64,000 bases of DNA, from assembly GCA_022539475.1 (NCBI GenBank), contig VCMS01000175.1, forward strand, positions 1-64,000. Direction: 5' to 3'. The notes beneath the pieces are model-generated. The model was not told the DNA's origin, searched no databases, and worked only from the letters and a program-made list of their open reading frames with translations. Origin of the DNA: Gracilaria domingensis (taxonomy: Eukaryota > Rhodophyta > Florideophyceae > Gracilariales > Gracilariaceae). This document shows positions 6,106-29,035 of this stretch, in pieces. Numbering within the stretch: position 1 is the stretch's first letter; each line of letters opens with the position of its first letter. A program made the translations under genes and the position numbers.

Positions 6106-6140
6106 ACAATGTAATAAACAATAAATTTATGCTACTATCT

Positions 6141-9256: not shown

Positions 9257-9271
9257 CTATGATATGAGATC

Positions 9272-10165
9272 TCAGTAATAAAAGTGTCGTATATATCTCA
9301 ATACCCTTTTATGATCATGGTGGTTTTTATCGTGCTGCTTTTCCTCGTAGCCGTACAACAGAGCCACCAACATAATTGTCGAATGTACATCCTCCACGCT
9401 TTCGAACAGGTTGTGTACTCCACCCGGGATACAATCTTCTTTGACGTGAACGCCGTACACGCCTACCTCATGCAAAGGCCCGTCGCTCAAAGCACTTCCG
9501 AACGTCACGACGTCATCCGTATCAATAAATCTCGGTTCATTATCCACAAGATTTTCTCCTCCGCTTCCTTTTGTGTATCGCTTGTCCACAATTTCGCAAC
9601 TTTTATCGCCGGGATAGATAACAAACGCATCCATCTTCTGCAACAGGTCCCCAATAGCAGAATCCACTTCTTCTTCCACTGCCACAGTTTGTTGTACACG
9701 AAATTGGGAAGGCCACTATCACTTCTGGTCTCCACGAACCCCTTGTCATCATCATTCACAATACCATGCCTCCTATTCAAATCCCTTGCCAGGAACAGTA
9801 GTCCGTCAACAGTGTGGTCAAGGGTGTGATCATTGAATGCACCCTTAATTTCCTCTCGTCAGAGAAACGCAGGAAAGCTCCATGATTCGCCGAGACACCA
9901 AACTTATAGTCTCCGAGTCCTTCCATTTTCCCCTCCACGTCGCCACATCACCCCCTGTGACAAGTCCGAAACCAACACGTTCGTCAATGAACTTCATACA
10001 CTTCACAACTTCTTCTGGAATTGACTCTCCTTCTCTTCTCAACGTTCCATCAACGGAACTTAATATACCGTAACCATTGGCATATATGAACTTAGACAAG
10101 GTATTTGGTGAAATTTCCGCCAAGTCTCTCTGTTCCTCTGCCATTTTTCCTGATACAGTCACCAT
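9272..10165 (-). pseudogene. Second trehalose-phosphatase-like HAD copy, broken, convergent
   Basis: A minus-strand paralogue of the preceding gene. It starts at ATG 10165 with GYGILSSVDGTLRREGESIPEEVVKCMK, aligning with the plus copy residue for residue, but the first Asp of the DxDGT nucleophile motif is replaced by Ser. Later matching blocks are VGFGLVTGGD, YKFGVSANHGA, SGLPNFVYN, TFGSALSDGPLHEVG and VEDVHSTIMLVALLYGY. These lie in at least three frames, so it is dead. The 3' ends of the two copies are only 15 bp apart, tail to tail. Divergence between them is high, so the inverted duplication is not recent. Confidence 0.6.
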
Positions 10166-10474
10166 ACTGCCACAAGTACCGCATAGACAGGAACTGTATA
10201 GACTCTCAGTTTCATACTTTTCTTAAAGCAACCTTAAGTGCAGTTTCAGAAATTTTGGACGCTACATGTTCAATTGCGAATTGATGGTGCACCAATGATG
10301 TTAACGATACCGAGCATTTGGCATGTTGCAATTAGAAGCAACTGGACCAAAGACGTTTACATTTGTTCAATTACCAGCCTGCCGCACCTTTTCTATGTTC
10401 ATATGTATAGCCTTGTAATAGTATACTACTCTTAATACTCGCAAGACACACATAGTTTACTAATCATCTCATTC
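10166..10474. other. Intergenic, no gene
   Basis: Short spacer between the HAD pseudogene and the end of the ParB-domain gene. No inverted end matching the far side of the putative transposon was found here. Confidence 0.4.
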
Positions 10475-13400
10475 TCATCCACTTCGAGGCGCTCGCAGCC
10501 TCATTATTGGCAAATCGTCATCACTACTACTCTCGAGCACTTCGGTTCTACCGGCGTCCGCTTCCACACCAATCTCCACGACCACTTGGTCTTCGTCCAT
10601 TGTCAACCGCCCACCCTCCCTTATCGGACAACAGTTCATCCTCCGCCTCTCCTCCTGTCACCATTGACAAAAGTGGGTCGGAAATCCCGTACCGATGAAC
10701 AGCATCAGGTAGTGCGTAGCCTCTGGTACCATGTACATGTGGTATCTAACCAGCAAATCCATAGACTCGGGCCTATCCACCTTGTCCTTCCCACTGCTCC
10801 AGCATGTGTCACATCACCACGGCCACGAATACAGAGTACGGTGGGATGATTATCTTCTTCGCTGGATACACCTCCGACATCACTGCAACTGTTGGTTGTT
10901 CATCCCGACCAGTTGATGGCTTTCCAGCGCTCACCCAGAGAGGAAAGCCCTCTTTCCCAGAGCCATACAAAGTATCCGGGGTTGCCAGTATTCATGTTTC
11001 TTGTAACAGACCACTGAAGTCGGTGTGCAGCGTCTGGCGCTTGCACTTTCTCGTCGTCCCCAGAAATCGACCACCAGTTTCGGAGTGTACATCTTCACAG
11101 CTTCCCTCATTGTCCCATAGTCCCAAAGCGCAGCAATTGTACCCATTCGAACATCAAGTAAAGCACGCGACCTTACAACCCACCTGAGCTCCTCATTATC
11201 CTCCGGCTTCTCCACCGTACCCCAACGTGTCGACATCACTCTCCCCTCAAATGGTCCATCGCTTACCGTCCTTCCATCCTTCATCATCGTTAATTTTTGA
11301 ACAAACGATTCTGTTCCTCCCTTCCGTATATCCGGCATCGCTCCATACTCATTCTCGAAGAAGTCCACCAACTTCCCCGACACATCTCCGAACTCCCGAA
11401 CTTCTTCCAACTCCTCCCATTTAGGGACACCATTATCCGCCGCAAAACCATTCAAGCACGCAATATCCATTCTGCCTTAGCTCAGCTGCATTCGGGCGAA
11501 GAACATTTGCCCAAATTCGTCATGCTCCTTCGCAGCAACCCACAGCACCTCTTCATCATCCATACCTGTCGGTCGAGTACGGGGATACTGCATACCAAAT
11601 GTCTCCGCCCGTAGCGATGTTCAGCCCTTGCAGCGTGCCAAAAAGACAGAGGTGTACATCTCTGAGATTCGAGACACTTAGCAGCTCCGACCTATGTCCC
11701 TTCGGCAAGTGAATGACTCTGAGCCAGGGGTCCTTGTGCTCAATTACGTTCTTCCCTTGCCATTCCTGCGGTCTCAGCCTGGCATACCCGCACCATGATG
11801 GGTTCGGTGGGCCATCATATGGGTCACCTCGAACAGGTCCGTGCTCCTCATATTCCGGAAGAGCTGTAGGTAACTCGTCATCAAATGACCCCCACCTGTC
11901 TCTTGCTGATCGTCTGGCGCGGCATCTTTCTCGACGGTGACAATCTGTGGAACTGTCACAGAAAGAAGCTCATCGTCATCCCACAAATGCAGAACTGCCT
12001 GCGTTCTCTGCATTCGCTCCCTCTCCCCAATGCCACGAACTGAACCTTCATCGACCTTCCTCTCAGCATATGTTCATTTAGTTGAGACATCAGGTCATCC
12101 GGTGTCATGCTGTTCAGAGTAGATCTCATCTGTTGTGTGAAAGTCTTTCTCCGTTTCTTCCTCGGCGGAGCCCGCTGTTCTTATTCAGAGCTATCCAGAA
12201 CTTCTATGGCACCTCGATTTCGGCCGTGCTCAATTTCCCTATGACTCACCTGCGCCCGTTCTCGTGCACTTCTTCGCGGCTCCCCTTCTTCACTGGCAGA
12301 TGTTGCAGCAGCAGCAGCGGGAGTCCTCCTCTCCGTCACGGACTGCTTCACTGGTGCGGGGGCGGAATTACCTTGAGCATCGTCCGCAATCGATTCTGAA
12401 CGGAAGTCGTGGCAGTTCTAATTGAGCTCGTCCTGCTCCGAACACGCGGCAATGTGTTGAAGTTCACAACTTGTCCCAAAAGGAACTGATACACAGCTGC
12501 GTTGTTGTCTGGGTCTTCAACGTCATCTTCATTCGATGGGGCAGAAAGACTGACTTCGCGTTTCAGGAACACTTCCATGGACTCTTCCTCGTTCAGTTCA
12601 TTCCTCACTGCTCTAGCCGCGCGGAACAGAGAGACTGCTCTATCATAAAGAAACCTCGAACCTCCTCAAAGCTTTTCCATTGCTTTGTCTTCGTCGACTT
12701 GCCCTTCAATAGAAACATCTGAAGACAATCAAGAATGAAGGAAAACTCCTCGGCATCCAAAACATATAGCGGAGTATGGGACAGATGTGTGAGACCTATG
12801 TCACTCACAGTCTGACATATATCCTCGAAATGGGCCAGCATTCCCTCACGGGACATGAGTTGCAGGGCGACATTGGCATATCTCAGGTACTGACGCTCTT
12901 GCACAGTCCCAATCAGTTGGCTCTCCTTCAACACTTCTGTCACTTCTGGCAGGATCCACGTCTGCCGGCGTCACCCCCTCAACATCTTCAATTAGAATGG
13001 CGACCACACTAACTATAGAGTGTATCTTGTCTGCAAACATCATTCTTCGCATGGTACTCGTCGACTCATTGAGGTACGAAGCAACACATAACAATTCCTT
13101 CATCCCAATGGGTCTCCCATCTCTTCGTATCAGCAGATTGCAACGCCAAAACTTGGCTAATCGCTTCCACTTCGGTGCACCAGTCGCTGCCAAATATTGT
13201 ATAGCTTTCAGACGATGCAAACCATCTACAATGAAGCACTTCTTCGTTAGGCGTCCCTTGTCAGTATCCCTCTCTCCCGTAGTAGCATCTTGTAAGGCCA
13301 CCACTGGAGAACCCATCGACTGCAATATCCCCCGCTCCTCCATACTCTTCACAAGGGCTTCAACGTGGCGTCTACTTACTCCACGGATTAAATTGGGCGG

Positions 13401-14370
13401 AGTGTCCACTAGAGTGATGTCAACGGTAACAACAACCATCCGGTAGTAATTGAGGTTCACCTTTGGTACCTTCTGACGAATTCGTCTGTACGTCTTGCTC
13501 CGAGTAGGTGTCCCTTGTGTTCCAGACCGCTCGCCAGAAACACTTGAACGTGCCATTCTTGCGGACAGAAACACAACGTCATCGTCCTGCTGCTCCGCAG
13601 TTTCTGGTGCAGTTTGGGGTACAGATGGACCAGCTCCTTGCGCGGATTGCGCATCCGCGTCTGGAAGGGACCTTTCATGATCTCATCTTCCTCCTCTTGC
13701 ACAGCCGTCCCCTGCTGAACCGTCTGTTTCGACGCAGAAGATCCCCTTGTGTCGACGGTCTGATTCATCGCAGGAGAAGCCCTTTTCGACGCAGTGGGCT
13801 TCGTAGCGGAGGTAGACTTTGTTTGACCTGTCCGCTTCGTAGCTGGGGATACTCTCGTCTCCATAGACCGCTTCGTAACAGACGACGGACCTGCCCGCGG
13901 AGGTGGTACTAATGCGCTACCTCTCGGTGTTGATGAACTTCGAATTGGCTCCGTGCGGCTTGTCGCGTCATCACCTCACTCATAGCGCTCACCGTTCCTC
14001 GCTTCGACGCCGGAATGCTGGCTGCCACCGGTTCCATCATTTTCTTATCCCAAGGAGCGGCCGTCCGGAGATCCTGGATATATTGTGGAAGATCCAGGCC
14101 CTCCGCCCGGTAAGGGTAGAACGTCTGACCGCTTCGACTGATGAGAATATTATGAACCACCACAAGACCTGGGTCCAATTGCTTCCCGTGCAACTCGCGG
14201 CGTAGAACACTTCCAATTCCATGCAACAACGCTTCCCCGACTATCACCTTCCTTCATCCTCAATATCCATCTGTAGAGAAACCCGCATTCCACCTTGCAA
14301 TAATCGAGTGCTCCGCCGAGTGCGAGGAGTCACGCTTTGCGTACGCTTTCGAACACGAGTTGGCTTCATG
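10475..14370 (-). pseudogene. ParB-like nuclease-domain gene with possible DNA methyltransferase tail
   Basis: Read leftward from ATG 14370 (basic N-terminus, MKPTRVRKRTQS). Coding signal runs to a stop at 10475-10477 through several frames. Around 13400-13190 lies a ParB/Srx-type domain: GVSRRHVEALVKSMEERGI, then VVALQ, then CFIVDGLHRLKAIQYLA, i.e. the R..V..L..S...GI and V-D-G-x-H-R-L-x-A signatures. Further blocks (VLDAEEFSFILDCLQ, DFFENEYGAMPDIRKGG) are not recognised. Near 10720-10640 the sequence DRPESMDLLVRYHMY...LFIGTGFPT resembles the P-E..L...motif I (D-x-F-x-G-x-G) end of N4/N6 DNA methyltransferases, an order known in phage ParB-methyltransferase fusions; this part is tentative. 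Several frameshifts make it decayed or badly assembled. Its promoter is one arm of the big inverted repeat. Confidence 0.5.
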
Positions 14371-14428
14371 TTGAACAGCTATTGCAGTGAAAGGTGTATA
14401 TCAACAATACGCTCGCTCTGGACGATAC

Positions 14429-14520
14429 AACAACGGAGGCGAGCCTTTAAATGGCGACTTACGCTGGGCACCCCCGCTTTCGGCAGCTCCTCCAGCGCAC
14501 TGCCAGTCTCGTCCGTGTCC
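14429..14520 (-). promoter_or_regulatory. Promoter-like arm for the ParB-domain gene
   Basis: Read leftward this arm contains the AT-rich core CCATTTAAAGG within G/C-rich sequence, about 80 bp before ATG 14370. The same segment in opposite orientation precedes the rightward gene at the equivalent place. That duplication at two start sites is the main argument for promoter function; no transcript data are visible. Confidence 0.45.
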
Positions 14521-14793
14521 TGTCCGTGGCCGCTCGCACACTGATTGTACGCTTTAGAGTCGTGGAGTTCGCGCAATGATGACTCACGCGAGCAATGGTC
14601 GCGTTCTCTAATCATGCTCTTCAAATGCTTTGCATAGTAGTCAAGAGTACACTCATTCACTTCCATGTACAGCCTACTCCCGCAAATACACGTGGAGAGC
14701 GGCGCCAACGTACCGGCGGCCGGGTGTAGCGAAATCACTGCGCGGCGGCGTGTTTTGCGAGGTCCGGGAAGGTGCCAGAATGTGGCCAGAACG

Positions 14794-14877
14794 TGCCCGC
14801 GGGCGGGGGGGGTCGGTCGTGTTAGGGTAGGTACCCTAACACGACCGGACCCCCCCGCCCGCGGGCATAAAATCGCA
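14794..14877. repeat. 84-bp near-perfect palindrome
   Basis: The arms start TGCCCGCGGGCGGGG and meet at GTTAGGGTAGGTACCCTAAC. The centre places one TTAGGG head to head with one CCCTAA. The arms differ only in the length of the G/C run and one or two bases. Confidence 0.8.
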
Positions 14878-14896
14878 CATTTTTCAAAAAATCGCC

Positions 14897-14984
14897 CAAA
14901 ACGTGCCCGCGGGCGGGGGGTCCAGTCGTGTTAGGGTACCTACCCTAACACGACCGACCCCCTCCGGCCCGTGGGCACGTTTTG
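14897..14984. repeat. Second palindrome, related to the first
   Basis: Same design as 14794-14877: CAAAACGTGCCCGCGGGC on the left, GCCCGTGGGCACGTTTTG on the right, and TTAGGGTACCTACCCTAA at the centre. It has more mismatches than the first copy. The two palindromes are direct repeats of each other. Confidence 0.75.
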
Positions 14985-15066
14985 GCCACATTCTGGCACC
15001 CTCCGGAGACCTCCCAAAACACTCCTCCCGGCACTTCCTGTACCCACTGCGTCACCTTAGTGCACT

Positions 15067-15187
15067 ATCCCGTCATCTTCACCCTCCAGACACTCCCTAA
15101 CTTCCGGGATGGTGCACTGAGGTGACCATCCCGTCTTCTCCACCCTCCAGACACTCCCTAATTTCCGGGATGGTGCACTGAGGTGAC
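15067..15187. repeat. Two tandem 60-bp units
   Basis: Two head-to-tail copies of a unit running from ATCCCGTC through CACCCTCCAGACACTCCCTAA and CCGGGATGGTGCACTGAGGTGAC, differing at a few bases. They lie inside the inverted-repeat region. Confidence 0.75.
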
Positions 15188-15463
15188 GCAGTGGGTACAG
15201 GAAGTGCCGGGAGGAGTGTTTTGCCTGGCCACATTCTGGCACCCTCCGGAGACCTCCCAAAACACTCCTCCCGGCACTTCTGGCAGTGATTTCGCTGCAC
15301 ACGCCGTGCACATATATCAAACTAGAGAAAACTAGCGCTTCACACCCACTTGATCCGCGACTTTTAGCACAATACGGGACCGTTGCAATAGCTCCGAATC
15401 GCGACGTGGCCGACACGCGACGCTATCGCTCCGACACGCGACGCTATCGCTCCGAGCGGACAC

Positions 15464-15556
15464 GGACACGGACGAGACTGGCAGTGCGCTGGGAGGAGCT
15501 GCCGAAAGCGGGGGTGCCCAGCGTAAGTCGCCATTTAAAGGCTCGCCTCCGTTGTT
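15464..15556 (+). promoter_or_regulatory. Promoter-like arm for the rightward gene block
   Basis: Mirror copy of 14429-14520. The CCATTTAAAGG core lies about 35 bp upstream of ATG 15569. Just before it are two copies of a 21-bp tandem unit containing GACGCTATCGCTCCGA (about 15412-15455). Confidence 0.45.
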
Positions 15557-15568
15557 TGCGCTGAAGCG

Positions 15569-17120
15569 ATGGATTCCACCGATGTTGGAGAGGAGATACA
15601 TCCTATCGACATGAGTGCACCGCCTCCGGCGTTCCATGCATATGTCAGACTTTTCTTGGTTCTTCGCGATGCTTTGGCAAACAGCGATGGAGGCCCTGAT
15701 CGGCCACGGGACGTGGGGTTTAGAGGGTTAATAGAGTTCTGCGCCGAGAACTATAAGGATATTCCGGAGGCAAGGAATATGTTTGAGGAGGCCACTAACT
15801 CCAAGAACCTGCAGAACTTGACACTGCAACAGCTGCGAAAGAGTGTTGTGAATAACAAACCTGTGGAACAACGATATCTTGTAACGAAGCTTCTTGACAA
15901 GAAGGACGGGGATGAGAACCAGAGACTGCGCGATTTTTTCCTTCTCTCTATGGATATGGGTATATACCTACCGGTGCGATGCCTGGTTGGTTATTTTCAT
16001 GACCAGGAGAAAGCAGGTTCTGAAGACGACAGTGTTCATCCCACCAACAGCTGTGAACCCATTTGAGGTCGTTATATACTTATCATACCTCGGCCACATA
16101 ATGGAGAGAGACGACAACATCCGAATGATGAAGAAGAGACAACCGAAAAAGAAACGAAAAGTGAACCATGCACCATCTGTTTACATACCCACTTTTACGT
16201 CGTTCTCCAAAGACAACTGTGATCGACTGGGATTCGCTATCAGTGAGGTCGTATGGGCATGGAGTTGTTTTGCGGCTCATCTTGGATACACGAACGTTCA
16301 GCATATGGTGAAACCATACATTTACATGAATATGCAGACGTTGAAGTATACGGCGCTAGAGACACGGGAGTCTGGTTATGCCCCGCCGAGCCAGAGTACT
16401 CGATTCAACACAAAGGATGTGCCACAGAGCAGTACTAGTGGATCGGTGGAGACCTTGAGTGATGAATGCGATACAAACCTCCGAATACTGGCTAAGGAAT
16501 TTTTGACAGACCTCGAAACCGTATGCACCCACGATAGCCTCTATAGCTTACGGGCTGATCAGATGAGGAACTGGATAGACTTTTCGGAGATACGGATGGA
16601 TACCGTATCTGGTTCTGACTCCGGTGAGTTGCCTGCTCTATTTCAGAAGTTTTCGGAGTTGCTATGGAAACCGATACAGGATATGCGTCATGCGGCAGGG
16701 TTCCATGTCGGCATTCACGCGAAACCTGATACTGAACTGACGAAACCCCTAAAACTTCCGGTAATGCCGACCTTCTTCGACCAAGTCTGCCCACCCATAT
16801 CACCTGCGTCGAGAGTATATGAACCTCGTGGCCCGCGATAGCGACGAGTTCGAGAAGGCCGTGAAATCTGCGGAGCCAATGAATCTCGGGTTGCGTTACA
16901 GCATCCAAAAGACTGGTATTGAGCCGCAGCCATGAAGGGGGAATCCAGTCTGCCTTGCGAATGCGATATGGACAAGGTGTGGAAGGGGATGAGCCCAGTC
17001 ACACTTTGTAGCGTACAACGTGACATGATGGACCTGAGGCAGACACACACGAAACGTTTTGTGAATCACAGTGAGATTTTATGGGGTGAGAGCACAAGCA
17101 TGTCCTAACAGACCCTCCCT
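15569..17120 (+). pseudogene. Rightward gene, N-terminal part of unknown function
   Basis: Starts at ATG 15569, 13 bp after the mirror promoter arm. Coding signal changes frame near 16020-16066 (from ...VGYFHDQEK to VLKTTVFIPPTAVNPFEVV) and again near 16835. The protein is mostly alpha-helical, with a basic patch MKKRQPKKKRKV that is a good nuclear-localisation signal, followed by TSFSKDNCDRLGFAISEVVWAW and later a long segment without a recognised domain. It runs into the assembly gap and most likely continues into the methyltransferase/SET part beyond it. At least two frame changes are needed, so it is either decayed or affected by assembly indels. Confidence 0.45.
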
Positions 17121-17174
17121 TTAACACTCGAAGGAAAGGAACAAACGAAATATGGTCATGTCTTCAGTGAGGGA

Positions 17175-17812
17175 NNNNNNNNNNNNNNNNNNNNNNNNNN
17201 NNNNNNNNNNNNNNNNNNNNNNNNNNNNNNNNNNNNNNNNNNNNNNNNNNNNNNNNNNNNNNNNNNNNNNNNNNNNNNNNNNNNNNNNNNNNNNNNNNNN
17301 NNNNNNNNNNNNNNNNNNNNNNNNNNNNNNNNNNNNNNNNNNNNNNNNNNNNNNNNNNNNNNNNNNNNNNNNNNNNNNNNNNNNNNNNNNNNNNNNNNNN
17401 NNNNNNNNNNNNNNNNNNNNNNNNNNNNNNNNNNNNNNNNNNNNNNNNNNNNNNNNNNNNNNNNNNNNNNNNNNNNNNNNNNNNNNNNNNNNNNNNNNNN
17501 NNNNNNNNNNNNNNNNNNNNNNNNNNNNNNNNNNNNNNNNNNNNNNNNNNNNNNNNNNNNNNNNNNNNNNNNNNNNNNNNNNNNNNNNNNNNNNNNNNNN
17601 NNNNNNNNNNNNNNNNNNNNNNNNNNNNNNNNNNNNNNNNNNNNNNNNNNNNNNNNNNNNNNNNNNNNNNNNNNNNNNNNNNNNNNNNNNNNNNNNNNNN
17701 NNNNNNNNNNNNNNNNNNNNNNNNNNNNNNNNNNNNNNNNNNNNNNNNNNNNNNNNNNNNNNNNNNNNNNNNNNNNNNNNNNNNNNNNNNNNNNNNNNNN
17801 NNNNNNNNNNNN
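17175..17812. other. Assembly gap (638 N)
   Basis: A run of undetermined bases. It removes the part of the rightward gene that would hold the N-terminal half of the methyltransferase domain, including any DPPY-type catalytic motif. Confidence 0.99.
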
Positions 17813-18923
17813 GAGCCAAGTAGTTCAGTACCAGGTCGGCATACATAAAGACCGCGAGCAGAATCGAAGGGAGTTGATGAAGAAAGTTGATATGTCGCTC
17901 ACAAGACCGGGTGACTTTGTCATGGACATGTTCGCGGGAACTTTTTCTACGGGTATGGGCGTGCCTATCGCTGACAAAGCATAGGAAGTTCTTGGGGTGC
18001 GAGAAGAATAGGCCATGTTTCACCCATGCGAAGCACCATCTAACGACTCTTATGGCCGAAGTTATTCGCTGGGGAAGAATGACATCCTGGTTGAACAGGA
18101 GGTGGTGGATGTGGCTTCAACGACTTATGAACGGGTTCCACATCGGGACCGAGGTCGGCTTGAATGGGAGGCTCCATTTGGTTACCCCCAGTACCAAGTG
18201 ATGCCTGGACATATTACTCAGTTCCTAGGAAGATACTGGAAGGACTGGGACTTTTTCGAGAAGTGTGGACAGCGTACTGTAGATCTTTGGGAGGGGAAGT
18301 ACCGAGGAGCTCTGAATCTAATGGATATGCATATGCTGTTGACTGTTGAAGCCAATCGCTATCGCTTACATATAGCATCTCTAAGATTCGACATCCCCGT
18401 GCTGGTATGGGGGTGTTCACGGAACATAAGATATTGGCTGGGGAAACTATCTGTCATTTCTATGGAACTTTGTATACACGGATCTGACGAACCGGAAGGA
18501 AAGACACTTAACGTATGGAAGTGGCTGTCTCGGAGCAACTCCAGTGCGGTACAAGTTGTTTTCTATGATGGTCACTGTGACTGGTACGGAGTTTCTGCAC
18601 CTGAGGAACAGACCAGGACAGGCTCAGGATAGAAAGGAGAGCGAAGTCTACATTGTCCTGGCGCCTTTTTGTATCGGGGGCTACATTAACGACGCCGGAT
18701 ATCATGCCGGGGATCCCGATTTATCGCAGCCCCGGTCAAACAGGACTCGAAGTGCCAATGTGCAGGTGGTGGAAGCCAAGTCGTGATACAGTTTAAGTCC
18801 GACCTTTCTAACTATGCTCTACTTCGTTGTAGAGCAGTAAGAGATATTGAGAGGGGCGAAGAGTTGTATTTCAACTACGGAGAGCAGTACGCCTGGGACT
18901 GGGCTTTGACATTGGAGCAATAG
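17813..18923 (+). pseudogene. DNA methyltransferase motif followed by SET domain
   Basis: Just after the gap: VGIHKDREQNRRELMKKVD, then RPGDFVMDMFAGTFSTGMG, then (other frame) KHRKFLGCEKNRPCF. This is the motif I (D-x-F-x-G-x-x-x-T) and G-x-E signature of N4/N6 amino-DNA methyltransferases, which transfer methyl from S-adenosylmethionine to adenine or cytosine. Downstream, from about 18375, comes a SET-domain start HPRAGMGVFTEHKILAGETICHFYG, then CIGGYINDAG, and a C-terminal end RDIERGEELYFNYGEQYAW before TAG at 18921. These parts sit in different frames (about four changes). SET domains methylate protein lysines, typically histones. Whether methyltransferase and SET were one polypeptide is not certain, but no start or stop clearly separates them. 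Confidence 0.55.
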
Positions 18924-19170
18924 ATGAGTTCAGTACCGAATAGAAAGTAAATATGCTTGTGAGTGTTGCGGCTGCCTGCAATACGCGTTGTTGTACATGT
19001 ACAATGGAGCTCTTCATCTGTAACGGCGATATTTGCGACCCATTGGGCACCTCAAATTCCTAAAAAGCAGGAACTGCGGAGTCTCCCGGAATATCTGAAC
19101 CATGCACCCCCCCCACCCCCTCCCCCCCTCCCCAACAACTTCGTTTCATTACCCTGTTTATCTCCACAAC

Positions 19171-21567
19171 ATGGGTATAACGCCGAGAAAGCGAAATAGT
19201 ACGCAGCGGAACAAGAGTGGACAGAAGAAGAGAAGAGCATCGGATGATACGAATCAGGCTACAAGCACCGCACTTCCTAAACGGAAGTCGTGCTCGACGA
19301 AGGAGAGAGTCAGTGGGCGTCCTTCTACAGGACTCTCTCGCCCATCTCGCAGCGGAGCGTCTTCCGGGATTGCGTCAAGAATTCGTGGATCAGCGAACGA
19401 TGTCGTGCCGTCAACTGCCGATAATGCAAATCGTGCATCTGTCTCTGCTCCTCAAGAAGATGAGGTAACTCGGCCCAGCGGGTCAGGACAGGAGGGCATG
19501 ACAACTGGAACGGAAGAGGTTCGTATGACACCAAAACCTTCATGTCCCCGGCCGATATCGAAGACCGGAGCTACTGGGGCGGGGGTTACGCCGCCCAGTG
19601 GATCTGGACAACAAGGGACAATGACGAGAAGTCGTGAGAGCCCTAGTATATTAAAATCGCCACGTCCATCCCTGTCTTTTAGAACTGGGGCCGCTATGAA
19701 TCGTATCATGCCTCGCAATGGGTCCGGACAAGGGAGAAAGACAATAAGAAATCGAGAGACAACTGATAGACGAGTTACTCCTCGACCTTCCCCTCTTTCC
19801 AGAACGGGGGCCGTTGCCAGCTCGTACGAGGCCCAATTCATCTGATATACCATGCCATGGAGGAGGACAGACACGGGAGTTGGAGCTCGGAGCCGTGCAA
19901 AGGGTGGAAACAGAACGCCTGCAGCCTCTCGTGTCTAAGGCTATGGCACATGAGGATAGTTCTGATAACGAAATAACACCGAATCCTGCGGCATTACCGG
20001 GGCCTGTCGCCGAAGAAGCTAGGGAAATAACGGAAGATATCCAAACTGGTGTGAATTCAAGCTCTATGAACAGACCTGATCTTTTAAATGAACTAAATTG
20101 CTTGAAAGAAAAGGTTAAGACGCTACAAGAGGACTTGATGGTTCCGGGAATTCTAGTGAAGGTCGCCCAAGAGCAGAGTACGGCTTTGAAAAAGAGGCTT
20201 GAAGAGAAGGATCTAGTCATTGAAGGGCTAAGAGGGGCACTGAAACAGGAGGGAGATAGGAGTACACGTGGTGGTGAACCTGGGCAGACAGGTCGAAAGA
20301 AGCATAAAATTGAGGTGTGCGACGAGTTTCGAGGGGTTGCTCGAGCAGTGTATCACAACATGCTGACGTGGGCAAGGAGAGAAACAAGTGAGCTATGGCT
20401 CGAAGGTGAGTCGCTCACCCGAAATTGGGGGAACCGTGCCGAGAAGGTGGAAGACGCAACTGAGAGTGGGGAAGGGCTTATTGAGCCGGAGGAAGGTGGT
20501 TCATACATGGTTCCTAAAAACCCCGTGGAGCTCTTGGGCAGTTTTGGCATGTTCACACCGTCGGTAGAGGGGGGCCAGATGCTTTGCTGAAGAAAATGGT
20601 TGAAAGCGAGTTGAAGGAGTTGAGCTGGGAAGGTATTAGAAAAGCATCTCTTACCGACAGGTGTATACTGGAACTTTGTGCAGATATGTGCCTTAGGCAG
20701 AGAATGCGGCAGACCATGAGTGACGTCGTGGGCGTTCGTAAGAGAAATACGAGGGATAAACTATTTCTGCTCCTGGGGTACGATCTGATTTGGAGAAGAA
20801 CAAAGCTGGTAGAAGAGAATGCTGACGAACTCACAGTGCAGTTGAATGAAGCGCAGGAGAACATACTGCGTCTTGACGAAAATGGTGTACCGAACACTTC
20901 ATGGTGGAGAAAAGCCCCATTTGTTCGTCTAAAGTACTCTAATGCGGACAATGTCGAGGATATGCCGACGGAAGATCAAGACTTGTTCTTCCGAAACCGT
21001 GTCGGGGTACAAGTGCTGAAGGAGTTTATTGGGTATGATGTGGAAGACAAGGACACGGGCACCTTTTTAGATGGCACAATACTGTTGCTCGCACGTTTGG
21101 ACGCTTGGGTGTTGACGGTTGTGAGCCTTCTAAGTACGGATGTGTCAAGGGGTGGCCAGAGACAGAAACTGTTTACAAAGACGTTTGCCGAACTGCTACC
21201 TCTGTGTTTAAAGAATGTTCTGGGGGATGTTAGGCAACGTGTCTTGAGGACCAATTCCAGCGAGTTTCATAATTTCGGAACGACAACGGAAGATTGGACT
21301 AAGGTTCTTCGTAATGACATGAGAGAGGCTACATTTGGATATCGAATGCCGTCGAACGGAAGACTTTACCTCACTGTGAAAGAACAATTTTTTATTGACA
21401 GTGTGAGCCGAAGATTGGGGTCTATTAGCGATTGCTTCGTTGGTGAATGCGAGGAAGGGGATATGGAGTTCAAGGAAATGGACATGAACGATTTCGGAAG
21501 TAACACAGGATCACAAGAAAAGGCACCACAAGGTGAACATGTAGAGGACGGAGCCCTTAATGTTTAA
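19171..21567 (+). pseudogene. Basic, repeat-containing coiled-coil protein (TnpA-like position)
   Basis: Starts at ATG 19171 with a strongly basic N-terminus (ITPRKRN, KKRR). Next come three imperfect ~40-residue repeats built on RPSGSGQ / TPPSGSGQ / MPRNGSGQ and ending in KTGA / RTGA / RTGA, then a helical coiled-coil (LLNELNCLKEKVKTLQEDL, LKKRLEEKDLVIEGLRGAL), then a long conserved-looking C-terminal region of unknown family. Two frame changes are needed, and both fall on G runs (19806-19810 and about 20569-20574). Its stop overlaps that of the transposase on the other strand. In CACTA elements the second protein (TnpA) binds subterminal repeats; position and DNA-binding-like composition fit that role, but there is no sequence proof. 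Either a gene with homopolymer errors or a slightly decayed one. Confidence 0.5.
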
Positions 21568-24500
21568 GGCTGTACAAGATCAACGTGCTCAGTTGGTCCT
21601 TCATCTGAATCATGATAGAATCGATTGATGTAGAATCGGTGTTGAAACCATTGAAGTGGAGAACAAAAAGGTGGAGCAGGGTAGTTTGATCGAACAACAT
21701 GGACAGTTCCCTGTAGTGCAGAAGCCGGAACCATCCCGTACCAAGGAGTTAACTCTACGATAGTCTCCGCTTTGGAATGACGAGGGAACGGAAGAGTGTG
21801 GTTCTTTTCATCATTTGTAGCCCACCGTAAAGATATGCATTTCAATATGTGGTCGATGTTTGTTGCGGGGGGTAAAACCTCGAAATACCGGACGAATGCC
21901 ACCTCTGGTGCGGTAAGTGCAGAATCAAGGAGAGATATTCGAATCAGAGCGACTACCTGGGCAACCCAAGTCTCTGAATCTTCTCCGCTTACCAATACAG
22001 TGGAAAAGTTTGGCTTTCTACTGGGACCAAATGCTGGAGAAGCGAAGACACGTTGGATGATGGGGTACTTGGGTCGTCCCAGCTTAAGTGCCTTAGAAGA
22101 CGAATCGAAGTGTTCAAGAGTCGGAACGAAACCGCCTTTCACGAGGGCCGAATTCACCAGAGTTATCCTTGTCTTTTCTGGGAAGTATGTAATAGAGTGC
22201 TCATCCAGTGTTTCTTTCACGAGACTGAGGAAAGGAGGAAGGGCCTGTTCACCAATTTGATCAAGAATCGACCTTGTGTCCCTACTTGAGAACATCTCTC
22301 TAACAGCAGTCCATGTTTTTGAACTGGACATACTTGAAACACAATGTTGAAGAGCTCGTAAAGTGAAAGAACGGCCTCTCATTGCAAACCGAGGAAGCTG
22401 TGTGGAAGTTCCTGGTAAACCTGGATTACGCTGGTAAGGAGTATTGCCATTCCATTGCTTTCTAACATGTCCGTGCTCAATGGAGCGAATAGTCTCTTCC
22501 ACAGCCGTTGCTGTTCTTCTGGACGTCTTTTTGTAGTGTCTTTTAAATAGCAGGTGTGCATGTTCGTATATGCCTGCGTCGTAGTACTTGATACTTCCCA
22601 GACGGCGAATATCGTCCACGAGATGATCGAGAAGATAAAACTTCAGAGTTCCCGGTCTGGAGGGATGAAAATCCGCCAGAGTCTTTGTTGCGGAACGCTT
22701 GAAGGCTTCAATCTCCGAACTAAGACACAGGAGAGAGCTTTCAGTCCAATACGGGTCACGATTGTATCTGAATAAGGTCGAAAGCAAGTCCGAGTACTGA
22801 GAGAAAACGGTTGTGATTGGGGCAACGTCCTGTTCTCCGCAGCATATGTCAAAGAATGCTCCTATGAAGGGAAAGACCATGTCAAGTGCTTTGTAGTTTT
22901 TGGCCTCCAGCATTCCACGGAGACCGTCTTTCGTGAAGATACCATTCAAAGATTTGCCTTTCTCCTGCGTGGAGAAATCGATATGTAAACCTTTGGCAGG
23001 AGAATCGCGTTCTATGGCAGCTAGAATTGCGTTTGCATGGTTGAGGAGTTGGGTGCGTATCGTTCGAAATGAACGCGATGCAGATGTTCCTATTGTGGTG
23101 CACAGGGTGTCTGACTGCAGTCTCTCGATTGTGGCGGTTTTTATCAACTTTGAGATGCCGAGATGCAAGTTGTGTAATGGTTCGAATGAGAACAGACTGT
23201 ATGGAGACAATCCCGGGATCATTCCAAGGCTTACGGAAGTTTCGAGGAACGAAGGAATGAGAGATATGGAATTTGAACGCATCAGAGTATCCGCTTGAGA
23301 TCTCCTCTCCCTCGCACGACGTGGACGTCTTTCCGCCTCGTCTTTTTGTGCATGTTTCAAGATAGCTGTGTATGTCTTTCGGATGCTTTTCGTGTGCTTT
23401 TGAGAACGTCCGTTGAATGAGGTGGGAATAGGACTGCATAAAGATGAGCGAGGGGCTTTGCATCTATGACACGGGCTTTCCGTTTTGGTCCCTTGAAGAA
23501 TGGACAGAATGTCCTTAGCCTCAGGAATATCCGCACAATAACTTGCAAGCAGAGGATGGCACACTCGACTTAGTTTGTCTTCGCCGATGAACTGAAAACC
23601 TTTCTGCGTGAGATTTAGAATGGGCTCCAGGACTTGACGAAGAGATTCTTGAAGGATTTGCATCCTGGACTCGCGTAGAGACTTGCTAGAAACGAATGGC
23701 ATTGCGTCTGCTTCAGATGCGGAAACCTCGATCAGTGTGGTAGGGAAGTATGCCACTACTGTGAGGTCATCACGGATACACTTACGGCGAAGCTCGTCGG
23801 AGAAGTTGAGAAATATGAGGTGAAGAGGATAGGCGGTAACCGATGTTTGCTTTAGAGTTGTTGAAGACTTATCGGTGTATACCTGCAGAAGACCTACGAA
23901 AGATTCACTGTAACTTATTTCTTGGGAGTACCACACTATTCTACTATCCAAAGAGCCCATGACCATTTCCTTAAGTTTTGAGGTGGCGTCTCTTGCGAGA
24001 GAGCCGGACATGGGGTGAGATATTTTCGTGGAGTGGGTCTGAGGTATAGGGTGGAAGAATGTGTTTTCGTTGTTAGCCAACTGGAGCTGTTTCACAAGTG
24101 TCTGAACGGGGTCTCTCGTGTAGAGGGTGGCGCTGAACTTACATCCTTCTGGCGAGACAGTTCTTCGATTGAAACCGTCCTTTGAGGCGTATCGTTCGAA
24201 AATGGCGTTCTTCACTTCTGTACAGCGCTTGGAACTTGTTATGGTCTCGTTGAATCGCTTTTGCGTGAATCGCGGGTCCCGAAGTAGCCCAATTAGCTCG
24301 TCAGCCTCACGATGACCAAGGTTGGAAGCTACTGAAGCCAGACAAACCGTGAGATAATCCATATGCAAATCACCGAGGGTCTCCTCAGAAGGCACTGGGC
24401 GGGAACTGCTTCCGTGTTCTCGCTCTAATGACGCGGGACCCGGGGAAGGAGAAACACAATGCGAAGTCTCCGGAATGGGAGGGGCGCACGGAGTGGGGTC

Positions 24501-24743
24501 GACGATGTCCTCGGACACCGGAGGCTCGGGAAGGCGACAAGGGGCAGTGACCGTTTCGGAAGATGCGGGCGCGGGTGCGGAAAGCTTGAGACGCTTGCTT
24601 CTCCGAATGGGCCGGCTATTGTCGTCTTCCAGCGCTGCTTTCAGACGAAACGGGCAATGGTTGACATGCTGTTGAAGAGATAAGACTCCTCGGCGAGTAA
24701 CGAAGGGGCACCCACGCTTCTTATGTGTACAGTAGTAGACCAT
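21564..24743 (-). CDS. CACTA/Plavaka-type transposase, intact
   Basis: An uninterrupted 1059-aa frame from ATG 24743 to 21564. The N-terminus has a zinc-finger pattern (C5, C12, H26, C30) followed by a disordered Pro/Ser linker with a basic patch (RRSKRLKL). The central region has ESPCHRCKAPRSSL, a Cys-x2-Cys block, and FEPLHNLHLGISKLIK, the D/E-x-LH-x2-x-LG signature of TnpD/Plavaka transposases. Further on, FHPSRPGTLKFYLLDHLVDD and IRRLGSIKYYDAGIYEHAH followed by KRHYKKTSRR match the family's K-x-H..H...I-R-x-x-G....E-x-x-H....T-x-R-R block. The family cuts and pastes DNA elements with an RNase-H-fold nuclease. It is full length for the family and is the best-preserved gene of its neighbourhood. 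Confidence on transposase is high; the exact subfamily (Plavaka, EnSpm or a KDZ relative) is open. Confidence 0.75.
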   Translation of the reverse strand: MVYYCTHKKRGCPFVTRRGVLSLQQHVNHCPFRLKAALEDDNSRPIRRSKRLKLSAPAPASSETVTAPCRLPEPPVSEDIVDPTPCAPPIPETSHCVSPSPGPASLEREHGSSSRPVPSEETLGDLHMDYLTVCLASVASNLGHREADELIGLLRDPRFTQKRFNETITSSKRCTEVKNAIFERYASKDGFNRRTVSPEGCKFSATLYTRDPVQTLVKQLQLANNENTFFHPIPQTHSTKISHPMSGSLARDATSKLKEMVMGSLDSRIVWYSQEISYSESFVGLLQVYTDKSSTTLKQTSVTAYPLHLIFLNFSDELRRKCIRDDLTVVAYFPTTLIEVSASEADAMPFVSSKSLRESRMQILQESLRQVLEPILNLTQKGFQFIGEDKLSRVCHPLLASYCADIPEAKDILSILQGTKTESPCHRCKAPRSSLCSPIPTSFNGRSQKHTKSIRKTYTAILKHAQKDEAERRPRRARERRSQADTLMRSNSISLIPSFLETSVSLGMIPGLSPYSLFSFEPLHNLHLGISKLIKTATIERLQSDTLCTTIGTSASRSFRTIRTQLLNHANAILAAIERDSPAKGLHIDFSTQEKGKSLNGIFTKDGLRGMLEAKNYKALDMVFPFIGAFFDICCGEQDVAPITTVFSQYSDLLSTLFRYNRDPYWTESSLLCLSSEIEAFKRSATKTLADFHPSRPGTLKFYLLDHLVDDIRRLGSIKYYDAGIYEHAHLLFKRHYKKTSRRTATAVEETIRSIEHGHVRKQWNGNTPYQRNPGLPGTSTQLPRFAMRGRSFTLRALQHCVSSMSSSKTWTAVREMFSSRDTRSILDQIGEQALPPFLSLVKETLDEHSITYFPEKTRITLVNSALVKGGFVPTLEHFDSSSKALKLGRPKYPIIQRVFASPAFGPSRKPNFSTVLVSGEDSETWVAQVVALIRISLLDSALTAPEVAFVRYFEVLPPATNIDHILKCISLRWATNDEKNHTLPFPRHSKAETIVELTPWYGMVPASALQGTVHVVRSNYPAPPFCSPLQWFQHRFYINRFYHDSDEGPTEHVDLVQP

Positions 24744-25110
24744 GGGAAGAAGAAATGAACGAGAAACGACGACAAAGACTGCAAGGGAAGGTTGTAAGAA
24801 GGGAGAAGGAGGTCAAGCGACAGTCAATATCGACGTCTTGCTCAGAACGGAGAATATATTTTGAGTTTAAATCACGTGCTTTCGTTCAAAAAGGAACGTA
24901 GGTACACGTCGACCTCAACACAAGGGTTTACTTCTCGTATTATCTACCACTGGTTATAAACCTGTGGTTTCGCAACGTTGTACGCTGTACACTTGTCCAA
25001 TCTCGCACAGAAAAATAAATCTCTTCCCTCCGCCGCCGCCCCCGCCCGTCCGACGTCCGACCTTTTGTTACCGTCGTGATCCGTGCCATCCTCGCGTTCT
25101 ACTCCGCTCT
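24744..25110. other. Transposase upstream region
   Basis: Purine-rich leader next to the transposase start, then a TTTAAATCACGTG-type segment. The near-palindrome CCACTGGTTATAAACCTGTGG at about 24946-24966 could be an element end or regulatory dyad. No gene. Confidence 0.35.
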
Positions 25111-25170
25111 GTCGTACTTTTTTCCGCCCTCGCACTCGCTACGAAGTGCGAGGGCGGAAAAAAGTACGAC
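25111..25170. repeat. Perfect 26-bp inverted repeat, 8-bp loop
   Basis: Arms 25111-25136 and 25145-25170 are exact reverse complements (GTCGTACTTTTTTCCGCCCT... and its mirror) around the loop CGCTACGA. As RNA read rightward it would be a very stable hairpin. Confidence 0.9.
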
Positions 25171-25435
25171 GGATTACGAAGTAGCGTGCTGAGAATGGAT
25201 TCTATTAAGCGGACATGAAGCGTACCTCATTCTCTTTCTCCGCCCTCGTCGGACGCCTCCATAAAGCGGACAGCATCCGTATCTCAAGGATGTATTCCGG
25301 GCAGTCTTTCCGTGCAGTCTTTTCGTACGTGCTTCCATTTCCTTCTACGTATCTTTGTTCTAAACTAACCAATCCTCACCACGTCTCTTCGCGCTCTGCG
25401 ACATGTAAACGGCAGGAAAAAGGCTTTGGGTTACT

Positions 25436-25582
25436 TTTGCGAGTTACTAGGTCCCTCGACTTTTCTAGCGCAACGTTTCTGTTTTGCTCTATCAATGGTA
25501 CGTTCTATCGCATTTCAACTGTATCCAACGGAGCATTGACTAACTTATGGATATTTTCTGCTTGCGTATACAGGTAAACGAC
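25436..25582 (+). repeat. Direct repeat copy 1 (~147 bp)
   Basis: Starts TTTTGCGAGTTACTAGGTCC and ends GTATACAGGTAAACGAC. Matches 25808-25955 with only a few substitutions and one small length change. The end sequence ATACAGGTAA looks like a splice acceptor followed by a donor, so an exon edge or transposon terminus is possible. Confidence 0.85.
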
Positions 25583-25807
25583 CAATTTCATTTAGTCTCT
25601 CAAGATCGATCTCTGGCTGTTCGGGATAGGCGATTCTGGTACTTGGTTGGGACATAGGCTGCTCTCTCGTTTATCGCATCTTGCGGTATGTTTGCTGCAT
25701 GGGCATTCTTCGTGTCCTTGCTTGTGAGTTCTCGCTTCGACACCTTTCGCGCTTTACGATGATGGTGGGCTGGTAATCTAACCGATCCCTTTCCTTCTTC
25801 TTTTTCA

Positions 25808-25955
25808 TTTTGCGAGTTACTAGGTCCCTCGACTTTTCTAGCGCAACGTTTCTGTTTTGCTTTATCAATGGTACGTTCCATCGCATTTCAAATGCATCCA
25901 ACGGAGAATTGACTAACTTATGGATACTTTCTGCTTGCGTATACAGGTAAATGAC
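25808..25955 (+). repeat. Direct repeat copy 2 (~148 bp)
   Basis: Second copy of 25436-25582, ending GTATACAGGTAAATGAC, about 225 bp downstream of the first. No protein frame is conserved between the copies. Confidence 0.85.
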
Positions 25956-25992
25956 TTTTGATGCGGACGTAGCTCACGAGTTGCAGGTGCAG

Positions 25993-26078
25993 GTTCCTCA
26001 AGTAGGGAACCATGCATCTGGGCATGGTTCCCTACATGAGGAACGGAGAGGATGAGGCGCTTCGCGCCTCATCCTCTC
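25993..26078. repeat. Two adjacent hairpins
   Basis: Hairpin 1 has arms 25993-26015 and 26022-26044 (23 bp, one mismatch, around CATGC...GCATG). Hairpin 2 has arms 26046-26060 and 26064-26078 (15 bp, perfect, loop TTC, core GATGAGGCGC). Only one base lies between them. Confidence 0.85.
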
Positions 26079-26628
26079 GGAGTGCGTATTTGTTCTACCG
26101 ATACAGCCGATGGTGGACGTGCGTGCAGTCTGTGGCATCTGCCGCAGATTGCGCCTACACCCGCTCCATCATGGGGATATGGTACATGTAATATAGCGAA
26201 GTAGTGGTTAGCAAAAGCGGTCGATAGAAGAATAGATACGAATAAAACGGTATGATTTCATAATGGGCATCATCTGTAGTAGCACTAGTATTCCATGCGT
26301 TGCAGGGTATCATTCCGCAGAAGGTATCGTGTAATGTGCACCTTAATGGAAACTGAACCTAGACTTCGCGAAATACAGTTCAGGTAGCCCTCGACTAAAG
26401 AACTAGCACGAGTGGAAAATCCACCAGTATTTACTGCACAGCGATTCTGGACGACCCAAGCCATTATCTCCAAATTTTGAAATAATTGATCTCGATATTT
26501 TTTCAAAAAATTTACTGGACGACCCTTGCCAATTTCTGGACGACCCTCGCCAAAAACTAGCATCTGCAAGAGACAAACGAAACTCAACCAAAGAGACAAC
26601 CGTTAAAACGGATCATCCGACAACTTCT

Positions 26629-29019: not shown

Positions 29020-29021
29020 TC

Positions 29022-29035
29022 TGGTCTCCCGACCT
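29022..29035 (+). promoter_or_regulatory. Retroelement primer-binding site
   Basis: TGGTCTCCCGACCT begins two bases after the LTR end. It is the complement of AGGTCGGGAGACCA, i.e. a tRNA 3' end including CCA. The same site adjoins the LTR at 26645. Confidence 0.75.

What the first reader, a model, noticed from the sequence alone, without database searches (positions are those of the whole stretch)
10475..24743. A DNA transposon that seems to carry its own ParB-like, DNA-methyltransferase and SET-domain genes
Seen: a ParB-type domain (VDGLHRLKAI), an amino-DNA-methyltransferase motif I (DMFAGTFSTG), SET-domain ends (GMGVFTEHKILAGETI and GEELYFNYG), a coiled-coil gene and an intact CACTA/Plavaka-type transposase lie in one uninterrupted 14-kb block with coordinated orientations. 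Known: some eukaryotic transposon groups carry DNA or chromatin modifiers. A combination of ParB-like, DNA amino-methyltransferase and SET with a Plavaka-like transposase is not one I recognise. Inference: the element may mark itself or its target chromatin.
Basis: partly seen in the sequence, partly recalled or inferred. Interest (0 to 1): 0.88.

Follow-up and report, generated by a model that had tools for sequence, protein, structure and literature searches.

The report
Giant algal transposon with chromatin-modifying genes
A 22,000-base jumping gene in a red seaweed genome carries, besides its own transposase, genes that look able to chemically mark DNA and histones, suggesting that it may control its own chromatin.

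Summary
The window comes from a Gracilaria-type red alga. The block belongs to a DNA transposon at window 4141-26579 (22,439 bp; ends 5'-CGTCTGT..ACAGACG-3', 12/15 TIR). Its exact ends occur 458 and 459 times in the 77.9-Mb genome. Eight genes lie inside: coiled-coil, dehydrogenase-like, two HAD phosphatase-like, gene A (ParB-like plus an unnoticed dioxygenase-like C-terminus), gene B (amino-DNA-methyltransferase fused to SET), a second coiled-coil and a Plavaka transposase. Copies chosen for long frames hold gene B intact (1045 aa; Pfam 56.9 and 32 bits) and gene A intact (1305 aa); many other copies, the window included, are broken. Of seven terminus pairs 21-24 kb apart, six contain A or B hits; of 19 pairs under 12 kb, none. 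No C5-methyltransferase match was found in the genome. Carriage is well supported; self-marking is inference. Weak points: ParB by weak profiles, dioxygenase by motif only, target duplication in 2 of 10 end pairs.

The parts
4141..26579 (.). Whole transposon (22,439 bp)
   Evidence: Similarity to other genome copies stops at or within a few bases of both ends; 12 of 12 left ends examined share C|GTCTGTGTTCTGC with 11 distinct flanks; coordinates
4141..4155 (+). Left terminal inverted repeat CGTCTGTGTTCTGCA
   Evidence: 458 exact copies of the 28-base terminus in the genome, reversed control 0
26565..26579 (-). Right terminal inverted repeat; TGCAAGAGACAGACG in most copies read, one base different here; 12/15 match to the left
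   Evidence: 459 exact copies of the 25-base terminus, control 0
4582..5682 (-). Gene 1, coiled-coil-like protein (by eye)
   Evidence: ORF, 341 aa in another copy; no Pfam family above cut-off
6658..7760 (+). Gene 2, dehydrogenase-like protein (Rossmann-like VIVGRGRIGT by eye); frame broken in the window
   Evidence: 367 aa in another copy; no Pfam hit, PDB hits not significant (E 0.22-0.62)
8338..9253 (+). Gene 3, HAD phosphatase-like protein; three frames in the window
   Evidence: PF08282 41.2 bits (cut-off 20.9) in another copy; PDB 3pgv E 1.9e-4; 126 scored genome matches
9314..10204 (-). Gene 4, second HAD-like protein; nucleophile Asp replaced by Ser (ILSSVDGTL, by eye)
   Evidence: PF08282 22.0 bits, cut-off 20.9
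10478..14369 (-). Gene A: ParB-like domain plus C-terminal dioxygenase-like domain; several frame breaks here, intact 1305 aa in L074
   Evidence: 70 scored genome matches to its C-terminal half
12950..13490 (-). ParB-like domain of gene A
   Evidence: PHROG ParB families E 0.0014 and 0.018 in two homologues; tblastn with P0003 13481-12993
10706..11144 (-). Dioxygenase-like domain of gene A (RQTLHTDF ... IPPYSVFVGRGD..HAGA ... RYHMY in intact copies)
   Evidence: Conserved between P0003 and gene A; identification by motif only
14370..15568 (.). Divergent intergenic region: inverted arms 14429-14520/15464-15556 (two perfect pieces of 65 and 29 nt) and nested palindromes (14767-15280)
   Evidence: I2, I14 and others; the region also aligns in other copies
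15569..18922 (+). Gene B: amino-DNA-methyltransferase fused to SET; frame breaks and N run here, intact 1045 aa in L071 and L072
   Evidence: 126 scored genome matches to its N-terminal piece
17111..17122 (+). DPPF catalytic motif (motif IV) of the methyltransferase
   Evidence: motif name recalled
17175..17812 (.). 638 N inside gene B
17925..17954 (+). Motif I DMFAGTFSTG of the methyltransferase
   Evidence: aligns with DpnA and CcrM
18404..18890 (+). SET domain
   Evidence: PF00856 32.1 bits, 32.0-32.1 bits in two intact copies
19102..21567 (+). Gene C, coiled-coil protein (by eye); one 834-868-aa open frame in C50, C591 and C139
   Evidence: 122 scored genome matches to its C-terminal piece; no Pfam hit
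21564..24743 (-). Plavaka transposase, 1059 aa, intact
   Evidence: PF18759 68.9 bits; 43 scored copies at 98-100%, 38 of 43 without stops
25108..25173 (.). Subterminal hairpin
   Evidence: I15

Best explanation
A giant (22.4-kb) cut-and-paste DNA transposon of a red alga, driven by a Plavaka-type (CACTA-related) transposase, carries a co-expressed two-gene epigenetic module. Gene B is an amino-DNA-methyltransferase (N6-adenine or N4-cytosine) fused to a SET lysine methyltransferase. Gene A, on the other side of a palindromic divergent promoter, joins a ParB-like DNA-binding domain to a dioxygenase-like domain. Most likely working: the ParB-like protein binds palindromic sites in the element, the methyltransferase-SET protein writes a DNA mark and a histone mark on element chromatin, and the dioxygenase removes or alters marks, so that the element stays expressed or escapes host silencing. 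Shown: the mobile unit, its gene content, the fused methyltransferase-SET frame, copy number, and fewer amino-acid-changing than silent differences between copies. Inferred: all biochemical activities, ParB targeting, co-expression and the anti-silencing outcome. Odds as I see them: carriage by the transposon about 0.95; self-marking of some kind about 0.55; anti-silencing rather than self-restraint about 0.4.
For: Exact termini in 458 and 459 copies with reversed control 0. Left ends with 11 distinct flanks among 12. In nine loci fetched because B lay beside the coiled-coil gene, B, coiled-coil and transposase sequence recur in order in 9 of 9 and gene A sequence in 8 of 9. Less biased: of 7 adjacent terminus pairs spaced 21.3-24.4 kb, A or B hits lie inside 5, and inside 6 when PF01555 hits are added (C5). 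Co-location in the capped lists: transposase with coiled-coil 25 of 43, B with coiled-coil 43 of 126, A with B 24 of 70, wrong-orientation controls 0-1. Intact frames: B 1045 aa in the two copies translated, A 1305 aa, transposase without stops in 38 of 43. pN/pS below 1: transposase 0.33, HAD1 0.36, B 0.38, coiled-coil 0.42, HAD2 0.51, A 0.56. 150 scored matches above the PF01555 cut-off and none for PF00145 in the genome. Near-identical 92-93-bp inverted arms at the 5' ends of A and B. Precedent: TET-carrying Plavaka and SET-carrying DNA transposons (PMC12730594, sections read).
Against: Two-base target duplications in only 2 of 10 end pairs read (C301 AT, C187 TT; not in the window, C23, C139, C143, C359, C89, C212 or the short C65 copy); about 0.6 of 10 is expected by chance. 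Assembly mis-joins are plausible: C301 and the window share 74 of 74 left-flank bases but have different right flanks. At the distance predicted for a full copy, the left end was found in only 1 of 9 stretches. Short copies are common and 0 of 19 pairs under 12 kb contain a listed A or B hit, so the module is not needed in cis for mobilisation. Only 5 of 43 transposase rows have a listed B within 9.5 kb (lists capped). Of the nine whole loci, gene A is missing in C65 and truncated in C50, C323 and C257; only C257 has a full-length B frame and none a full-length A frame. ParB and dioxygenase assignments are weak: no Pfam ParB or Tet_JBP match, no useful PDB hit, AlphaFold unusable at mean pLDDT 29.5, second model never collected. 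No activity, expression or DNA-modification data.
Confidence: 0.6

Rival explanations
1. Self-restraint: the methyltransferase-SET protein silences the element's own copies (copy-number control or peaceful coexistence), not anti-silencing.
For: Very high copy number with near-identical genes. The bdelloid N4CMT precedent joins an amino-methyltransferase to chromatin reading in transposon silencing (PMC8885841, passages read).
Against: Recent amplification is evident (43 transposase copies at 98-100%), so any restraint is leaky; there a host gene does the silencing, here the element carries it.
Confidence: 0.2
2. DNA hypermodification: methyltransferase, dioxygenase, HAD and dehydrogenase-like proteins together make an unusual base that protects element DNA, as phages do.
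For: The gene set pairs a DNA methyltransferase with an oxygenase-like domain and with HAD proteins; phage parallels are described in PMC12730594, section 4.2.
Against: HAD2 lacks the catalytic Asp by eye; the dehydrogenase-like assignment is weak; the oxygenase is unproven; Pfam scans of the eight genes named no glycosyltransferase or kinase.
Confidence: 0.15
3. Passenger cargo: captured genes that hitch-hike without a role in transposition or silencing.
For: Short derivatives with the same termini lack listed A/B hits yet are numerous; genes 1 and 2 have pN/pS 0.67 and 0.83; gene A is missing or truncated in 4 of 9 whole loci.
Against: Intact A and B frames exist and pN/pS is 0.56 and 0.38; a divergent homologue of gene A keeps the same two-part architecture at 30-33% identity.
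Confidence: 0.15
4. Chance neighbourhood: a Plavaka element inserted beside unrelated host genes.
For: Only a partial transposase, and no cargo gene in full, lies in the short variant read.
Against: The order is repeated across contigs with wrong-orientation controls of 0-1; the genes lie between shared termini.
Confidence: 0.02

Closest known systems
TET-carrying Plavaka and other DNA transposons of fungi (Kojima 2025, PMC12730594; abstract, passages and sections 3.2, 3.4, 4.2 read)
   Same: Plavaka-type transposase with an epigenetic enzyme carried as cargo; presumed anti-silencing role
   Different: Host is a red alga; cargo is an amino-methyltransferase-SET fusion and a ParB-like/dioxygenase-like protein; the termini differ from the reported TGT..ACA or CATCA..TGATG; no Tet_JBP profile match here (Pfam scans)
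SET-carrying Harbinger and MuDR transposons of oomycetes (cited in PMC12730594; originals not read)
   Same: SET domain carried by a DNA transposon
   Different: Different transposases; a fusion of SET to a DNA methyltransferase is not mentioned in the passage read
[quoted passage not shown] 2013, as described in PMC6431247; passages read)
   Same: Giant CACTA-related transposons in a red alga; possibly the same lineage
   Different: Gene content is not given in the passages read; I could not compare sequences
Plavaka-flanked giant repeats of Amoebidium (PMC11244446; passages read)
   Same: Long multi-gene repeats with a Plavaka transposase
   Different: Up to 50 kb, many tyrosine recombinase genes; no ParB/methyltransferase/SET content mentioned for them in the passages read
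Bdelloid rotifer N4CMT (PMC8885841; passages read)
   Same: PF01555 permuted amino-methyltransferase joined to a chromatin-related domain in a eukaryote
   Different: Host gene with a chromodomain, not transposon-borne and not fused to SET in the passages read

Membership tests
Plavaka DNA transposons | Plavaka transposase domain (PF18759) | tested here: met
   68.9 bits against a cut-off of 26.3; 68.2 bits in another copy
Plavaka DNA transposons | Terminal inverted repeats bounding the transposase, TGT..ACA (PlavakaA) or CATCA..TGATG (PlavakaB) | tested here: inconclusive
   Termini are CGTCTGT..ACAGACG; TGT..ACA lies four bases in
Plavaka DNA transposons | 2-3-bp target site duplication | tested here: inconclusive
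   2-bp duplication in 2 of 10 end pairs read
Plavaka DNA transposons | DDE catalytic residues with C(2)C and H(3-4)H motifs | tested here: inconclusive
   CHRC and candidate D, D, E positions seen by eye in the protein; H motif not settled; no alignment to reference transposases
Beta-class (permuted) amino-DNA-methyltransferase | PF01555 domain with DPPY/F before the FxGxG-like motif I | tested here: met
   56.9 and 47.0 bits in two copies (cut-off 26.7), residues 506-743, DPPF then DMFAGTFSTG
Beta-class (permuted) amino-DNA-methyltransferase | DNA methylation activity (6mA or 4mC) | not testable with these tools
   none
SET lysine methyltransferases | SET domain profile match | tested here: met
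   32 bits against 22.4, residues 873-1032; weak, non-significant similarity to KMT2A structures (E 0.048 and above)
SET lysine methyltransferases | Histone lysine methylation activity | not testable with these tools
   none
ParB family | ParB N-terminal domain profile match | tested here: inconclusive
   No Pfam ParB match; PHROG ParB E 0.0014 and 0.018; a sub-threshold GmrSD_N match, E 0.015, for the isolated piece
ParB family | Partner ParA and parS sites | not tested
   none
TET/JBP 2OG-Fe(II) dioxygenases | Tet_JBP profile match | tested here: not met
   No Pfam family for either domain piece at E up to 10; HMMER filters may drop weak matches
TET/JBP 2OG-Fe(II) dioxygenases | H-x-D/E ... 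H ... R in a double-stranded beta-helix fold | tested here: inconclusive
   Motif conserved between gene A and P0003; the fold was not obtained

The most novel reading that the evidence does not exclude
A eukaryotic DNA transposon that brings its own complete, self-targeted epigenetic programme: a ParB-like protein that loads on palindromic sites in the element, a single enzyme that writes both a DNA amino-methyl mark and a histone mark, and an oxygenase that edits the mark, running in a host without recognisable C5 DNA methyltransferases, so that the transposon family itself is the genome's main DNA-methylation machinery.
Probability: 0.3. Interest if true: 0.93.

Novelty: new variant of a known kind. 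Interest (0 to 1): 0.82.

Why it matters
Eukaryotic transposons that carry one chromatin- or DNA-modifying enzyme are known. In what I searched and read I found none with an amino-methyltransferase fused to SET and divergently paired with a ParB-like/dioxygenase-like protein (paper searches; open-access full texts only, mostly seen as listings, and Repbase reports are not covered). With 458 exact left ends in one genome, intact frames in some copies and no C5-methyltransferase match, it makes a direct test possible: does a mobile element, not the host, write DNA amino-methylation in a multicellular alga, and does that help or restrain the element?

Tried and rejected
Fungal origin: my first impression from the gene style; rejected when gene A matched Gracilaria domingensis proteins. 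Element limited to 10475-24743 or to a coiled-coil/transposase unit: my inverted-repeat scans found no convincing ends because the real ends lie at 4141 and 26579; the left end was outside the stretch scanned. The inverted arms at 14429/15464 as transposon ends: rejected; they lie inside the unit, at the 5' ends of two divergent genes, and I saw no target duplication by eye. TSD rule NNC: rejected, since right flanks mostly lack C at that place. Homologues of gene B by protein search: none at E up to 0.01 among 2907 candidates. Relatives in viral contigs (4 scans) and in prokaryote genomes: none confirmed. A profile search with gene A relatives returned only P0003. AlphaFold of P0003: mean pLDDT 29.5, unusable, so no fold search was made. 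Second AlphaFold job was unfinished at each of six collecting calls. Solved-structure searches for the dioxygenase-like domain gave only noise.

Limits: genome hit lists are capped by the tool, so an absent gene is not proof of absence. The pair list uses 100 of 458 left and 100 of 459 right ends, those that the tool printed. Copies L071-L073 and L074 were fetched because the search showed long open frames; L073 was not translated. In the first batch of end stretches one of 20 requested did not exist, in the second three of 20. pN/pS uses 4-17 copies per gene and non-independent pairs, skips stop codons and poorly aligned residues, and may include sequencing errors.

Full report
WHAT WAS CLAIMED AND WHAT IS THERE. 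The finding described ParB-like, DNA-methyltransferase and SET pieces beside a coiled-coil gene and a Plavaka-type transposase. The transposase is one open frame of 1059 codons at 21564-24743 on the minus strand and matches PF18759 at 68.9 bits. In the window the other genes are interrupted: three-frame translation shows gene A (minus, 14369 to about 10478) and gene B (plus, 15569 to 18922) moving between frames, with a run of 638 N at 17175-17812 inside gene B. Read through with X at breaks, the part of gene B after the N run gives SET (32.1 bits) and N6_N4_Mtase (29.4 bits), both above Pfam's cut-offs. DPPF lies before the N run and DMFAGTFSTG after it, the order of the permuted beta class (class rule recalled).

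WHOSE GENOME. A protein search with gene A returned two Gracilaria domingensis proteins (80% and 77% identity through the frame breaks) and one 993-aa protein of unnamed origin at 30%. In pieces without a frame break the window mostly agrees with the Gracilaria proteins at 88-99%. The two bear names of a Mediator subunit-like and a surface-protein-like product, so their nature was not recognised there. I infer that the window is G. domingensis or a close relative (lineage).

THE MOBILE UNIT. Searches of the window's own genome (77.9 Mb, 680 contigs) gave 43 scored transposase copies at 98-100% identity, 38 of 43 without stops, 126 scored matches to a gene B N-terminal piece, 122 to a piece of the coiled-coil gene, 70 to the C-terminal half of gene A and 126 to HAD1; the tool calls all these lower bounds. 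Twelve left ends compared all read C|GTCTGTGTTCTGC, with 11 distinct flanks. Right ends were found in 11 of 13 stretches and in 11 of 11 (three of these repeat the first batch); all read ..AGAGACAGACG except C238 and the window copy. At the distance predicted for a full-length copy, a left end was found in 1 of 9 stretches. The unit is therefore 4141-26579, 22,439 bp, with a 12/15 terminal inverted repeat. The exact 28-base left terminus occurs 458 times and the 25-base right terminus 459 times, with none for the reversed control patterns.

DO THE CARGO GENES LIE INSIDE? In the nine loci, B, coiled-coil and transposase sequence recur in the window's order in 9 of 9 (the C163 transposase runs off the contig). 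Gene A sequence is present in 8 of 9: absent in C65, truncated in C50, C323 and C257. In the capped hit lists, transposase copies have the coiled-coil gene upstream in 25 of 43 and B within 9.5 kb in 5 of 43, B and the coiled-coil gene pair in 43 of 126, A and B pair in 24 of 70; three wrong-orientation controls give 1, 0 and 0. From the 100 left and 100 right ends printed, 46 adjacent pairs could be formed. Of the seven spaced 21.3-24.4 kb, five contain a listed A or B hit; a sixth, C5, contains a PF01555 hit in the right orientation; for C54 nothing was listed. Of 16 pairs of 12-17 kb one contains a listed A or B hit, and of four of 19-20.6 kb one does. Of 19 pairs under 12 kb none contains a listed A, B or HAD1 hit and seven contain a piece of transposase. 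One such copy, C65, has a transposase piece (72% over residues 1-624), a 55-residue trace of gene B's start at 40% identity, a middle without similarity to the element, and the element's ends. So the termini mobilise both the full unit and shorter derivatives, and the module is not required in cis.

TARGET DUPLICATION. Ten copies have both ends read. A 2-bp duplication is seen in C301 (AT) and C187 (TT) and not in the window, C23, C139, C143, C359, C89, C212 and the short C65 copy. About 0.6 of 10 is expected by chance. C301 and the window share 74 of 74 bases of left flank but have different right flanks, so mis-joining of 22-kb repeats in the assembly, or recombination between copies, is plausible. 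The TSD remains unproven.

GENE CONTENT. From left to right: gene 1, coiled-coil-like; gene 2, with a Rossmann-like start by eye, no significant match; HAD1 (PF08282, 41.2 bits) and HAD2 (22.0 bits; its nucleophile Asp is Ser by eye); gene A; gene B; coiled-coil gene C; transposase. Gene B is one intact 1045-aa frame in the two further copies translated (chosen for their long frames), with N6_N4_Mtase at about 506-743 (56.9 and 47.0 bits) and SET at 873-1032 (32 bits); its nearest solved structures are DpnA and CcrM. Gene A is one 1305-aa frame in C81, again chosen for its long frame. In the nine whole loci only C257 has a full-length B frame and none a full-length A frame. Gene A's middle is ParB-like, on weak profile evidence (PHROG 0.0014 and 0.018; no Pfam ParB match). 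Its C-terminus, conserved in the divergent P0003, reads RQTLHTDF ... IPPYSVFVGRGD..HAGA ... VRYHMY, the H-x-D...H...R pattern of Fe(II)/2-oxoglutarate oxygenases (pattern recalled). Neither Pfam nor the PDB sequences support this, and AlphaFold failed, so I hold it at about 0.7.

SELECTION AND RECENCY. Across fetched copies pN/pS is 0.33 for the transposase (17 copies), 0.38 for B (12), 0.42 for the coiled-coil gene (17), 0.56 for A (5), 0.36 and 0.51 for the HADs (7 each), 0.83 for gene 2 (6) and 0.67 for gene 1 (4). This fits function during recent spread for most genes, with the caveats given in Tried and rejected.

HOST CONTEXT. PF00145 (C5-methyltransferase) gave no match in this genome, while the same search rang in 10 of 14 control genomes; introns could hide a host gene. 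PF01555 gave 150 scored matches, all above the cut-off. About 30 of those rows (by eye) start at profile position 1 rather than 2 and may be a second subfamily. If the 46 pairs' mean length of about 14 kb applied to all 458 ends, the family would fill roughly 8% of the assembly; this is rough arithmetic, not a measurement.

HOW IT MAY WORK. Genes A and B start on either side of a 1.2-kb region with near-identical 92-93-bp inverted arms and nested palindromes, which suggests joint expression and a possible ParB-type binding site. The simplest reading is a writer (methyltransferase-SET), a recruiter (ParB-like) and an editor (oxygenase-like) acting on element chromatin to keep it active. Self-restraint, base hypermodification and passive cargo remain open, with the odds given in the rival list.

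COMPARISON. TET-carrying Plavaka elements are reported from fungi and SET-carrying Harbinger/MuDR elements from oomycetes (PMC12730594). Enlarged 16-20-kb En/Spm families with 4-5 ORFs are reported from the red alga Chondrus crispus (PMC6431247), and Plavaka-flanked giant repeats from Amoebidium (PMC11244446). The bdelloid N4CMT is a host PF01555 enzyme with a chromodomain (PMC8885841). This element shares the kind, a large transposon with epigenetic cargo, and differs in the enzyme set and in the methyltransferase-SET fusion. Because Repbase entries for Chondrus could not be read, a relative with the same genes may already be catalogued there.

Noticed in passing
G000:C65:8070-17241 and pairs under 12 kb: Shorter elements, many of about 9-11 kb, share the exact termini; the one read holds a partial transposase, a trace of gene B's start and a middle unrelated to the 22-kb form.
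   Followed up: partly
G000, about 30 of 150 PF01555 rows, e.g. C41:258305 inside a 16.9-kb terminus pair: A second type of PF01555 methyltransferase seems multicopy in this genome and may sit in a sister element.
   Followed up: no
window 53218-60130: Candidate Harbinger-like transposon: 37-bp inverted repeats (97%) around an ORF at 53487-55130 and a DDE-transposase-like ORF at 58369-59664 (identified by eye), with 41-46-bp tandem repeats inside.
   Followed up: no
window 46198-50960: Identical 300-bp direct repeats flank a Copia-like polyprotein frame (by eye), so probably a young LTR retrotransposon.
   Followed up: no
window 28442-39407: Gypsy-like pieces (by eye) on both strands with long inverted repeats near the right end of the transposon.
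   Followed up: no
window 9314-10204: The second HAD-like protein has Ser in place of the catalytic Asp, so it may be a non-catalytic partner of the first.
   Followed up: no
window 25435-25582 and 25808-25955: A 148-bp direct repeat (95%) near the right end, parts of it also aligning in other copies; possibly a transposase-binding subterminal repeat.
   Followed up: no
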